23,335 bases of DNA from a virus: positions 1-23,335 of the IMG/VR virus record IMGVR_UViG_3300017971_000775. One strand, given 5' to 3'. How positions within the stretch are numbered: the stretch's first letter is position 1; each line of letters starts with the position of its first letter. Of the stretch, positions 1,891 through 23,105 are shown piece after piece. The position numbers were made by a program, and so were the translations under genes. The notes under the pieces were generated by a model that was not told the DNA's origin, ran no database searches, and was given only the letters and a program-made list of their open reading frames with translations.

Positions 1891-3564
1891 CTATAATTTA
1901 ATATGTAAGTACCAAAATCGCGTTGGCTGCATATTATTATGCGGCTGATTTCCACCAGTACCACCAGTATCTTGAGTGCTATCACCTATCCATGCCGCGA
2001 CACCACTATCAAGGGGCTTTATTTCAATGCCACCCCTATAAGAATATGTATGGGCATGATTGGCTAATTGATCAACATTTAAAGTATGATATTGATCCCC
2101 AAAAAGATCGGATGCTACAGGCGCAAAATCTAAATATAAAGAAGATGAACCAGCAACACCAAAAGCCGACCCAGAATATACTTCTAATGACATATGTTTA
2201 TTTGCATCAAAATCAGCATCTGCGCTTGCTCCTCTTGACCCAGCAACTGGAAATACAGAGTCTGGGTAATTGTTCCAATATAGTCTATACAGGTTTCTAG
2301 TTGCTTCTCCAGAAAAAGTTGCTCCAGATAATCCAACTGTATCGGTAGAGCTTGATATAACGATCCATCCCGTGGAAGCCGCTGCGGGCGGCACAGCGCT
2401 CCACTTCATATCACCTGTTGTGTGGAGATTAGCACTAATCATTTCCATGATAACTTTATTTGCTGTCTGATTAAAGTTTTGATATATAAAATCATTAGAT
2501 GGCGGTGTTCCAGTTTGCATTTGGAGATTAGTAAGGGCCCATCGACCAATTGTATTTAATGGAAATCTCCACCTCAATCTTAATGATGAGTCTCTATTTG
2601 TACCTAAACTTTTTCCAGCAATGGATGGTATGTTAATGCTGGAAAGAGCAATACGCGCCCAAACACCATTTGGGAAATTAAAATTAACAGGCGTTGGAAC
2701 TGACGCAGAAGGTGCCCCACCAGTACCAAAATTCTGCTCAATAATAAGCTCTGTTGCTGCTGGAACAGATCCGAATGCATCAAAATTAATATGGACTGTT
2801 TCGCCTGAAAAAGCCCTAACATCATTAATTACGTACACTAGGTCTAAAGAGGTTGAAGCAGCCGTTCCTATTGCTTCATATTCAAAATATCTAGGAGCAT
2901 TTTTAGACGGACCATTAGGGATTCCAACCCCTACAGAAGAATCTACAAATCGAATAACATCATTTATTCCATCTGCTCCAGTTTTTTCAAATAACCAACC
3001 AGTTGTAACCTTTTCTGTCGAGCCCGTAAGAGATCCGTTATTATTAACAACTGAGCCAGAAGTGTAATAACCGTCAGCAGTAGTGATCCCAATGCTGCCT
3101 CCTCCCGGCGCTACTCGAGTAAATCCCTGTGATGGAACCCTCGGTAATTTAGGAACCAAGCCAGAAACAAGACCATTAAATATATCGTTTGATATAACAT
3201 GGAAATTTCCATTTATTATGAAGTTCGCAACATCCGCATTGACTGTAATAGGGGGACCTGTTCCAGAAGTAACAATTGGATAATCATCGATTGATAAAAT
3301 CATTCTTCCGCTAGCATCTCTAATAACAACAAAATATTTATCCGTTCCGTTATCTTCCCAATACATTGGTACAGGGGTTCCACCAGTTCCATCTAATGGG
3401 ATTGGATTTATATAAGCTCCAATTCCAGCAGGATCAGAATACACTGGTTTCGGAGTAATCTTATCTAACGAGCTGTATGTTTCCATCGTTCCATTAGCGG
3501 CCAGCTTCCCTTCTGCATCATGAAAATACCACTTAGGGGATGGTGCTAAAAAAAATGTTGCCAT
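1891..3564 (-). CDS. Tail fibre / receptor-binding protein
   Basis: The 557-residue protein has an N-terminal domain (about 1-95) of a type common at the start of phage fibres: SPKWYFHDAEGKLAANGTME, then TPKPVYSD, NPIPLDGTGG and MYWED. This part probably anchors the fibre to the virion. A long beta-rich middle follows. The C-terminus (about 495-557) has NHAHTYS and PHNNMQPTRFWYLHIKL, which resembles the H-x-H and PHxNMxP...Y pattern of metal-binding tail-collar/receptor tips (T4 gp12-like). It starts just after the 24-aa gene at 3567-3641, whose 3' end holds the AGGA ribosome site. Host receptor binding is inferred from architecture and position. Confidence 0.85.
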   Translation of the reverse strand: MATFFLAPSPKWYFHDAEGKLAANGTMETYSSLDKITPKPVYSDPAGIGAYINPIPLDGTGGTPVPMYWEDNGTDKYFVVIRDASGRMILSIDDYPIVTSGTGPPITVNADVANFIINGNFHVISNDIFNGLVSGLVPKLPRVPSQGFTRVAPGGGSIGITTADGYYTSGSVVNNNGSLTGSTEKVTTGWLFEKTGADGINDVIRFVDSSVGVGIPNGPSKNAPRYFEYEAIGTAASTSLDLVYVINDVRAFSGETVHINFDAFGSVPAATELIIEQNFGTGGAPSASVPTPVNFNFPNGVWARIALSSINIPSIAGKSLGTNRDSSLRLRWRFPLNTIGRWALTNLQMQTGTPPSNDFIYQNFNQTANKVIMEMISANLHTTGDMKWSAVPPAAASTGWIVISSSTDTVGLSGATFSGEATRNLYRLYWNNYPDSVFPVAGSRGASADADFDANKHMSLEVYSGSAFGVAGSSSLYLDFAPVASDLFGDQYHTLNVDQLANHAHTYSYRGGIEIKPLDSGVAAWIGDSTQDTGGTGGNQPHNNMQPTRFWYLHIKL

Positions 3565-3566
3565 TA

Positions 3567-3641
3567 TTAATCTTCCTCAAGCCCTTTTAGAGCATCTGCA
3601 ATTAAAACCAAGCCAATACCAATTAAAAAATAACCAACCAT
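3567..3641 (-). CDS. 24-residue membrane microprotein
   Basis: A TAATG overlap couples its ATG (3641-3639) to the stop of the ejection-protein gene. The product is MVGYFLIGIGLVLIADALKG plus LEED: one hydrophobic segment of about 16 residues and an acidic tail. It exactly fills the gap between that stop and the tail-fibre start and its end holds the fibre gene's ribosome site. This tight fit makes translation likely. It may be a small holin-like, pinholin-like or ejection accessory peptide, or only a coupling leader; nothing in the sequence decides. Confidence 0.55.
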   Translation of the reverse strand: MVGYFLIGIGLVLIADALKGLEED

Positions 3642-5089
3642 TAAAATAGCTCCCTTCCCGCTTTAATTCCGCCGCCAACTGCTGCCCCAGCTCCGGCTAA
3701 CTCTAGCCCGCGCAACCCGTATTTTCTAATTAGTTTAGAGGATCTAAATTGATTTTCTATCTTATCATTCATGAACTCATGAGTTGGGTCTACAAATTCT
3801 CTTAAACCTTTATTTTCTAATTTATTAAACTCATTTATAAATTTTGCCGGATTTATTTTTAATTTCCCACCAATGCGTCTAACCGCCGGAGAAAGTCCAT
3901 GCGCAACAAATAAATCTCTATCTTCTGGAGATAATCTTTCTTTTATAAAGCGTGCGCTTTCTTCTGGTTGTTGCAGAAGGTTAAATATTCCTTCTGGATT
4001 ATGCTTCATTCCTTTTCTTTTTAAAAGCATATTCGAAACAAGTCTATTTTCTAAAAAAGGAGCTACTTCATTTTTATGAAACTCAGATGCATCTAGATAT
4101 GCTTTTTTTAGAACTTGGTTGGTATTACTCCATCCATTTCCAGCTTGATCAAAGGAATCTAAAATGTCTTCTCTCAATGCATTTCTTGCTTGTCCTGTTG
4201 CAAAAGATTTTGCGCGATCGGCTGGATCGAGGCTATTTCGCAATGCTGATTGCTCCTTAAATAGTTCCGATTGCAATTTGTGAGCATTTTTAAATGAGGG
4301 TGTTTTTTTAAAATCTAATAAGGCTTCTTTTGCTTCTGGTCGATAAACATTTAATTCCCCCATCAAAGGAGTTGATTTTGAGGAAATAATTTGCAACCCT
4401 TCTTTCTCAATTCTATCAGTAGGAGCGACTAATTCATCTCCAAATCCAGCTTTTTTAGCTAATTCATGTACATAGTCATAGTTTTTTTTGCTGGCTAACT
4501 TCGTATTTTTGTATAATTCTTTGATCTTATTATTTAAAGGGGTGTGGAGATCTCTTAAGCCTCTTCCTCGCGATATTTTTTTGAAAAAATTAACGGCCGT
4601 ATCCGCAGCATTTTTACCTGAAATAGGAGAAGCAAGCCTAGAAATTCCTCTTCCTGCCGCTCCAGCCACTCTTTCTGCCCCTCTTAGCCCTGCTGCGCCA
4701 CCAGTACCAAGGTATCCTAATGCTTCCGTAGCAGCCTGTGGTATTTGAGTCATTATATCTTGTTGCTGAACTCCAGGAATAGCCATTGGATGAACCGATG
4801 GTAACTTAGCTAATTGACGTACGCCAGGCACCCCAAAATATCGCCCTAACAATCCAACATCCCGCGGTAGATTTTCTAATCCGGCCACTGCGCTTTCTGC
4901 ACCTTGAGCTATTCCGCCACCTATATTTAAAAGAGCTTGTAATGGAGAATGTTGAGGTTGAAAAGAAATACCCATGAATTTTGTTGGTTGAGCTTGTTGT
5001 GGAATATCAGCTAGCGAAGGAGTAAACCCACCTTCACTAGGCTTCTGTTGAATCTCTTCTATGTCTGATAATGTTGGTTTATAAGCCAT
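3641..5089 (-). CDS. Large ejection (DNA-injection) protein, P22 gp16/gp20-type position
   Basis: The 482-residue product starts MAYKPTLSDIEEIQQKPSEG. The N-terminal third is Gln/Pro/Gly-rich. Residues about 130-180 have small-residue-rich helices (AAGLRGAERVAGAAGRG), the middle (about 185-430) is strongly charged and helical, and the C-terminus ends in a Gly/Ala-rich possible membrane helix (LELAGAGAAVGGGIKAGREL). P22-like phages carry three proteins here (gp7, gp20, gp16) that leave the capsid with the DNA and form a channel through the cell envelope. Assignment rests on gene order, size and composition, not on recognised motifs. Confidence 0.65.
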   Translation of the reverse strand: MAYKPTLSDIEEIQQKPSEGGFTPSLADIPQQAQPTKFMGISFQPQHSPLQALLNIGGGIAQGAESAVAGLENLPRDVGLLGRYFGVPGVRQLAKLPSVHPMAIPGVQQQDIMTQIPQAATEALGYLGTGGAAGLRGAERVAGAAGRGISRLASPISGKNAADTAVNFFKKISRGRGLRDLHTPLNNKIKELYKNTKLASKKNYDYVHELAKKAGFGDELVAPTDRIEKEGLQIISSKSTPLMGELNVYRPEAKEALLDFKKTPSFKNAHKLQSELFKEQSALRNSLDPADRAKSFATGQARNALREDILDSFDQAGNGWSNTNQVLKKAYLDASEFHKNEVAPFLENRLVSNMLLKRKGMKHNPEGIFNLLQQPEESARFIKERLSPEDRDLFVAHGLSPAVRRIGGKLKINPAKFINEFNKLENKGLREFVDPTHEFMNDKIENQFRSSKLIRKYGLRGLELAGAGAAVGGGIKAGRELF

Positions 5090-21877: not shown

Positions 21878-21896
21878 ATTACCTTTCCTACAGGGT

Positions 21897-22299
21897 GGGG
21901 GCAGGACGCCGGTACCTAGCGTGGATTTTTAAAAGAGTCAAAAGGATTTACTAAATTTAAAATCGTTCGTCCAAAATACCTTAACCCCGCCTAAATATTC
22001 ATCTAGGCGTCCCTTCCCATCGAAAGCTAGAATATCCCGCGGAATACTCTAGCTACATCTCTAGGCTAACTCGTACTTTATTCGGAGCCATAGCCGCCCA
22101 TCAATGTTCTAACAAACCTATCTTAAAGACACCGAGTCCAATTCGCTGGAATTAGGCATGCATACATCTAAATAAGCCGCGATATTAACCCTTCAGAATA
22201 ATATACATTCTCAGTGCCTTTAAGATAGATTTAATTGGGGGACCGAAGCATCAATTAATAGAGGGCAATCAATGCTCCGGCACAACAAACTAACTATTA
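21897..22299 (-). ncRNA. Large structured RNA (leader or independent noncoding RNA)
   Basis: This stretch has no gene. Read as minus-strand RNA it folds into long stems. (1) 22280-22266 with 22257-22243: 15 bp, four G.U. (2) 22232-22210 with 22136-22114: 23 bp, three G.U, enclosing hairpins 22204-22199/22187-22182 and 22150-22146/22141-22137 (CGAA loop). (3) 22095-22091/22068-22064 plus 22088-22085/22072-22069. (4) 22053-22041/22038-22026: 12-13 bp, two G.U. (5) 22009-22001/21996-21988: 9 bp, one G.U. (6) weaker GGACG/CGUCC, 21972-21968/21908-21904, with outer GGGG/CCCC. Nearly all differences between arms are G.U-compatible, so the RNA, not the DNA, is paired. It begins just after a strong promoter. 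No known class could be recognised by reading. Confidence 0.75.
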
Positions 22300-22305
22300 A
22301 ATAAC

Positions 22306-22334
22306 ATAATATAACATTATTTCACTTATGTCAA
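22306..22334 (-). promoter_or_regulatory. Strong sigma70-type promoter
   Basis: On the minus strand a perfect TTGACA (22334-22329) is followed after 17 bases by TATTAT (22311-22306), one base off TATAAT, and TG precedes an overlapping TATATT. Transcription should start near 22299, about 20 bases before the first stem of the structured RNA. It is placed to serve the whole minus-strand gene block. Confidence 0.75.
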
Positions 22335-22355
22335 CATTATTTTAATCTTTTTTTA

Positions 22356-23105
22356 GATTCATTTCTGTAATGTGGTAATCTAAATACTCATGATTCATTT
22401 TATTCTTTCGGATATCTTAAGCCTCTTGATACATTCAGTAATCATGGTTATCTCCCTCTTCGTGATTCATTAACACCTATTGGTTATCTTAAGTTGATTG
22501 ATTCATTTTGTGTCTTTGATTATCTTCGTATGGATGATTCACTACCTGTTTCTGGTTATCTTTTATTCAACGGTTCATTTGCAATCATTGGTTATCTATA
22601 TTATATCGATTCATTTGCATTGATCGGCTATCTAGTTTTACCTGATTCACTTTACAATGCTGGTTATCTTGCATACACTGATACATTCACATCTTTTGGA
22701 TTCCTGTTCTTCTCTGATTCATTTGATACATTTTGTTTTCTTGGCTATCTTTTCGCAACTGATAATTTTTAATTCACTTTAGTATATATAATATATACCT
22801 AGTACTTATGATACATTTATATACCTCGGATATCATTTAATTCTGATACGTTAAACAAGTGTGGTTATTTTCTGTTTTGCGACTCATTTCAATAAACTGG
22901 TTACCTAAAACAGGATGATACATTTGATTTAGATGGTTATCTGTAACACATTGATTCATTTAAACACTCTGGGTATATTCATTTTATTGATACATTTATT
23001 TGTACTGGTTATCTTGCATTAGCTGATTAACTTCGGTCTCTTGGAAACCTTTCATTGATTGATGCATTAATTATTCCGGGTACCTGCCATAGAATGATTA
23101 CTTAC
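22356..23105 (+). repeat. 36-bp-period array of two alternating 9-bp boxes
   Basis: Box A (GATTCATTT and variants) and box B (GGTTATCTT and variants) alternate every 18 bp. A boxes start at 22356, 22392, 22428, 22464, 22500, 22536, 22572, 22608, 22644, 22680, 22716; then 22725 and 22761; then 22810, 22845, 22881, 22917, 22953, 22989, 23025, 23061 and a weak one at 23096. B boxes lie 18 bp after nearly every A. The spacers of about 9 bp are not alike. The phase slips by +9 at 22725 and is irregular at 22761-22845, then resumes. Read on the plus strand, boxes encode D-[ST]-[FL] and G-Y-L in one frame. Confidence 0.9.
22371..22772 (+). pseudogene. Open segment of a 12-residue-repeat protein, probably decayed
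   Basis: The frame is open for 133 codons on the plus strand, against the phage genes, and encodes repeats of D-[ST]-[FL]-x3-G-[YF]-L-x3, for example IDSFALIGYLVL. No ATG occurs before 22530; a TTG at 22494 and the ATG lack ribosome sites. The same repeat continues, after two small frame slips that cancel, through 22863-23085 with three TAA codons, and another TAA at 22368 precedes the segment. Third codon positions vary most in the boxes, which fits past selection on a protein. I judge it a remnant; an expressed short form cannot be excluded. Confidence 0.45.

What the first reader, a model, noticed from the sequence alone, without database searches (positions are those of the whole stretch)
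22356..23105. Array of about 22 units: two different 9-bp boxes alternating every 18 bp with unlike spacers
The phase is strict for 11 units and again for 7 units, while the ~9-bp spacers share nothing. This is not a simple tandem repeat, CRISPR or iteron array. It lies beside the promoter of the structured RNA, with box A1 22 bp upstream of the -35 element.
Basis: seen in the sequence. Interest (0 to 1): 0.85.

Follow-up and report, generated by a model that had tools for sequence, protein, structure and literature searches.

The report
Phage TIGR guide-RNA array, TasH-like
The striking array of two alternating short boxes is a store of small guide RNAs of the TIGR-Tas type, a recently described phage-borne DNA-targeting system that resembles CRISPR; here it sits in a podovirus fragment that breaks off before the matching protein gene can be seen.

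Summary
In detail: two alternating boxes, 36-bp period, exact phase for 11 and then 7 edges, spacers unlike one another. It is a TIGR (Tandem Interspaced Guide RNA) array, read on the minus strand like the recognised genes of the window: edge repeat AAATGAATCA, about 9-nt spacer A, loop repeat AAGATAACCA, about 9-nt spacer B, 19 units. Pattern scans with the boxes found seven other virus contigs with such arrays, and all seven encode a Tas (Nop-domain) protein. The contig with the same repeat consensus (IMGVR_UViG_3300024238_000001) has its array directly before a full-length homologue of the solved nuclease TasH (E=6e-91). A profile built only from other phages' TasH arrays picks out the window array, on the minus strand only. 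No Tas gene lies on the 23.3-kb fragment, which ends about 230 bp beyond the array; no spacer target was found. So it is a new member of a known kind (Faure et al. 2025, PMC12045711), most likely TasH type, in a podovirus lineage whose examined relatives show no Tas.

The parts
22355..23103 (-). TIGR array, 19 dual units: edge (A)AATGAATCA, spacer A, loop (A)AGATAACCA, spacer B; 36-nt period
   Evidence: nhmmer with this array finds TIGR arrays of other Tas loci
22355..22769 (-). 3' sub-array (in minus sense); 11 edges in exact 36-nt phase
22770..22809 (-). decayed junction between the two sub-arrays, 49 instead of 36 nt between edges, holds the palindrome GTATATATTATATATAC
   Evidence: and sequence
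22810..23103 (-). 5' sub-array (in minus sense); 7 edges in exact 36-nt phase plus flanking weaker ones
23095..23103 (-). first, imperfect edge repeat AAGTAATCA; the stop codon of the upstream 75-aa ORF lies inside it, as the tas stop codon does in L016
23098..23325 (-). 75-aa ORF just upstream of the array (frame still open at the contig end); not a Tas C-terminus, no homologue found
22306..22334 (-). TTGACA-17-TATTAT promoter downstream of the array, for the next transcript
21885..22290 (-). structured RNA after that promoter; neighbour, not shown to belong to the array
   Evidence: (z -5.8)
22494..22772 (+). spurious antisense ORF (DSFxxxGYL repeats) caused by the 36 = 12-codon period

Best explanation
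The array is the guide-RNA store of a TIGR-Tas system carried by a podovirus. It is transcribed from the minus strand into a long precursor, which with a Tas protein is cut within the edge repeats into 36-nt tigRNAs. Each tigRNA holds two spacers of about 9 nt between the box motifs of edge and loop repeats; a Tas dimer binds one tigRNA and unwinds a DNA site read as spacer A followed by the reverse complement of spacer B, each spacer pairing with one strand. If the partner is TasH, as the repeat match to another phage suggests, the HNH domains cut both strands. Shown here: the array anatomy, its strand by homology, recurrence beside Tas genes, and a TasH partner for the same repeats in another phage. 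Inferred from the published system: transcription, processing, DNA targeting. Not known: the partner gene of this phage, the targets, and the biological role (competition between mobile elements is the usual guess).
For: Anatomy matches the published definition (two alternating 8-12 nt repeats, 9-nt spacers, 36-nt units; PMC12045711). All seven virus contigs found through the boxes that hold a true array encode Tas: L002, L003, L004, L005, L006, L007 and L043. In reverse, of 24 rows returned by two Tas searches 23 show a 36-bp array beside tas or within about 2 kb, the other (L012) being cut at the contig end; some rows are duplicate contigs. L043/G020 has the window's repeat consensus directly before a Tas that matches solved TasH 21kl over residues 20-315, E=5.7e-91, and TasR 9mty, E=8.6e-14. 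The Salicola phage CGphi29 system, studied in the TIGR paper, has repeats AAGCGAGCCA/AAGACAACCA; its loop differs from the window's by one transition. A profile from nine other TasH loci gives 10 window sites of 10 bits or more, all in the array and all minus; shuffles average 0.003.
Against: No Tas gene is on the 23.3-kb fragment by profile or phmmer search. No terminator follows the array, unlike the typical TIGR array. TerL relatives of this phage show no Tas and no array in the stretches read. No spacer pair has a target above chance. Some loops and edges are decayed, so part of the array may be dead. The TasH assignment rests on repeat similarity; some TasA arrays (L011, L016) have nearly as similar repeats.
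Confidence: 0.93

Rival explanations
1. An orphan or decaying TIGR array: the phage has lost its tas gene, and the array is a remnant or uses a Tas from a co-infecting element or the host.
For: No Tas on the contig; decayed middle; no Tas in TerL relatives.
Against: The contig ends 232 bp past the array, on the side where tas often lies; relatives suggest about 13-15 kb are missing; most box columns are still about 80-95% conserved.
Confidence: 0.12
2. Binding-site array for a phage DNA-binding protein (partition site, iterons or nucleoid-like positioning).
For: Short boxes at fixed spacing, unlike spacers; TIGR-TasA loci can carry a ParB-like gene (PMC12045711).
Against: Recurrence is tied to Tas genes, with a fixed strand relative to tas, and the repeats match those of characterised tigRNA arrays.
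Confidence: 0.02
3. Degenerate coding repeat: a 12-aa repeat protein DSFxxxGYLxxx read on the plus strand.
For: Frame open for about 11 units with wobble-like third-position changes.
Against: In-frame TAA in the first unit and later; opposite to all recognised genes; no family match; L002 has mixed 35/36/37-nt spacing that breaks frame.
Confidence: 0.01

Closest known systems
TIGR-TasH of Salicola phage CGphi29 (NC_020844.1; SpTIGR, Faure et al. 2025, PMC12045711)
   Same: 36-nt dual-repeat units; 10-nt repeats ending in CA; loop AAGACAACCA against AAGATAACCA; tailed phage; array co-directional with its neighbouring genes
   Different: Edge AAGCGAGCCA against AAATGAATCA (more AT-rich here); tas adjacent and a terminator-like hairpin in CGphi29, no tas seen and no terminator in the window
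TIGR-TasH of IMGVR_UViG_3300024238_000001 (L043/G020), found here
   Same: Same repeat consensus, AAATGAATCA and AAGATAACCA
   Different: Unrelated phage by TerL and portal; array of about 7 units placed directly upstream of tasH
CRISPR arrays
   Same: Repeats with unlike spacers that act as guides
   Different: CRISPR has one 25-36 nt repeat and spacers of similar size; here two alternating 9-10 nt repeats and 8-9 nt spacers
IS110 bridge RNA and box C/D snoRNA
   Same: Guide RNAs bound by Nop-type domains (per PMC12045711)
   Different: Not arrays of 36-nt dual-repeat units

Membership tests
Dual-repeat TIGR array | Two distinct alternating repeats of 8-12 nt | tested here: met
   AATGAATCA and AGATAACCA (9-10 nt)
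Dual-repeat TIGR array | Spacers of about 9 nt, unlike each other, 36-nt unit | tested here: met
   17 of 19 units are 9/9; column information
Dual-repeat TIGR array | Edge and loop share end motifs | tested here: met
   both start AA and end (T/C)CA on the minus strand
Dual-repeat TIGR array | Adjacent tas gene (Nop domain) | tested here: inconclusive
   none on the contig, which ends 232 bp past the array; an array elsewhere with these repeats has tas
Dual-repeat TIGR array | Truncated edge at the end followed by rho-independent terminator (typical, not universal) | tested here: not met
   no terminator; final edge is nearly full and followed by a promoter
Dual-repeat TIGR array | Processing into 36-nt tigRNAs | not testable with these tools
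   needs small-RNA sequencing
Dual-repeat TIGR array | Spacer pair matches a DNA target as A + rc(B) | tested here: inconclusive
   matches at chance level in about 0.49 Mb of held sequence; natural targets of published systems are also unknown
TasH subtype | HNH-Nop effector | tested here: inconclusive
   only by proxy: same repeats in G020 go with a TasH homologue
CRISPR array | Single repeat of 25-36 nt | tested here: not met
Protein-coding repeat | Open frame through the array | tested here: not met
   in-frame stops

The most novel reading that the evidence does not exclude
An array that works without its own tas: the phage borrows a Tas encoded by another element or the host, or the array and the neighbouring structured RNA form a Tas-independent unit.
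Probability: 0.07. Interest if true: 0.65.

Novelty: new member of a known kind. Interest (0 to 1): 0.4.

Why it matters
It adds a podovirus lineage to the carriers of TIGR guide arrays and ties its repeat type to TasH nucleases in other phages, including the experimentally studied CGphi29 system. With 19 spacer pairs it gives material for the open question of what natural TIGR arrays target and how they change, once the phage's host and complete genome are known.

Tried and rejected
Simple tandem repeat, CRISPR and iteron readings. Coding repeat on the plus strand. Rfam families, none. The 75-aa ORF as a Tas C-terminus: its end (KPELGLSPRKLSK) looks a little like AKLGLNH of other Tas, and its stop overlaps the first edge as in L016, but the conserved RYMIKMF region is absent and the Tas profile does not hit it. 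The 75-aa ORF as a handle to relatives: no hit. TerL relatives for the same array: none in the stretches read; weak lag-36 signals in L024 and L027 are not arrays on inspection. A look-alike RNA upstream in L003: folds no better than shuffles. Self- or cross-targets of spacers: chance level. Bacterial genomes: no contig with the box pattern, and no TasH relative found through two peptide patterns; a negative there is weak. Three of four short-pattern hits (L041, L042, L044) are single chance matches without array or Tas.

Full report
The window is a 23.3-kb IMG/VR virus record of podovirus type: terminase subunits, portal, major head protein and head closure protein are recognised, all on the minus strand. 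Its large terminase is 51% identical to that of Pseudoalteromonas virus vB_PspP-H6/1 and 52% to Vibrio phage 1.182.O; relatives are about 36-41 kb, so perhaps 13-15 kb are missing. The array lies at the right end, 22355-23103; the contig ends 232 bp further on.

Observation. GATTCATTT and GGTTATCTT alternate every 18 bp on the plus strand. Read on the minus strand the edge repeat is AAATGAATCA and the loop repeat AAGATAACCA, with spacers of 8-9 nt; 19 units were parsed, 17 of them with 9/9-nt spacers. Lag-36 identity is 0.495 against at most 0.349 in 500 dinucleotide shuffles.

What it is. An exact pattern of the window's boxes found one further virus contig, L002, with a 3.7-kb array; a broader pattern found five more. 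These arrays lie next to a protein with weak similarity to the IS110 transposase domain that matches the solved entry 9mty (E=1e-11; a protein of 331 residues, the length given for TaTasR in the paper) and TasH 21kl (E=5e-7). This led to TIGR-Tas (PMC12045711; [quoted passage not shown]

Tests of the link. (a) From array to protein: L002, L003, L004, L005, L006, L007 (pattern hits) and L043 all carry Tas. L003, L004 and L006 are close relatives of each other, so these are about five independent cases. (b) From protein to array: 23 of the 24 rows of Tas relatives returned show a 36-bp periodic array beside or near tas, upstream or downstream; L012 is cut at the contig end, and some rows are duplicates (L008-L010 repeat L003, L006, L004; L056 and L063 repeat L055; L059 repeats L058). 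(c) A profile from nine TasH-linked arrays, without the window, scores 10 bits or more at ten window places, all in the array and all on the minus strand, against a mean of 0.003 in shuffles. (d) nhmmer with the window array lists TIGR arrays of L054, L016, L002, L011, L055 and others; composition bias is large there, so this is supporting only.

Which subtype. L043/G020 has the same consensus repeats, directly upstream of a 318-aa protein that matches TasH over residues 20-315 (E=5.7e-91) with weak colicin-type HNH similarity at its N-terminus, and 48% identity to the CGphi29 protein. Other TasH loci have AAGTGATTCA/AAGACAACCA (L054), AAGTGAACCA/AAGACAACCA (L055) and AAGCGAGCCA/AAGACAACCA (CGphi29). 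Some TasA loci are nearly as close (L011, L016), so TasH is probable (about 0.6), not shown.

What is missing. No Tas in the window by profile, phmmer or six-frame search. The 75-aa ORF that ends inside the first edge is not Tas. No terminator follows the array; a near-consensus promoter (22334-22306, minus) starts the next transcript, a 406-nt structured RNA (z -5.8) with no relatives found, so a functional link between array and RNA has no support. Spacer pairs, read as A + gap 0-2 + rc(B), have no targets beyond chance in about 0.49 Mb of held sequence; that order of the two halves was derived from the 8-nt 3' overhangs reported in PMC12045711.

Mechanism. By homology the minus-strand transcript would be cut into 36-nt guides that program a Tas dimer to bind, and if TasH to cut, DNA. 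In the published work TasR reduced plasmid maintenance but not phage infection or conjugation in E. coli, so the role in phage life is open.

Verdict. Real, well explained, a new member of a known kind; interest is moderate because the kind is recent, its biology is unsolved, and the partner gene lies off the contig.

Noticed in passing
L002:2690-6440 (+): Exceptionally long TIGR array: about 93 to 110 edge repeats (published arrays mostly 5-15 units), bounded by hairpins that look like terminators, next to a 473-aa Tas with insertions.
   Followed up: partly
L005:1-3250 (minus sense), tas at 3336-4940: Another very long array, reaching the edge of the held locus, with a 534-aa Tas that has large insertions; same metagenome (3300010167) as L002.
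   Followed up: partly
window 21885-22290 (-): 406-nt RNA region that folds far better than shuffles (z -5.8), after a near-consensus promoter; no Rfam, phage or plasmid relative.
   Followed up: partly
window 22770-22809: Palindrome GTATATATTATATATAC in the decayed junction of the array, where the 36-nt phase slips by 13.
   Followed up: no
phage collection: 74 Mycobacterium phage records carry weak Tas relatives, some annotated as transposase; arrays beside them were not examined.
   Followed up: no
L049 (G020:C1 about 41561-41883): Tandem repeats of about 12 bp (AAGCTGACTATC) at the contig end of the phage with the matching TasH array.
   Followed up: no
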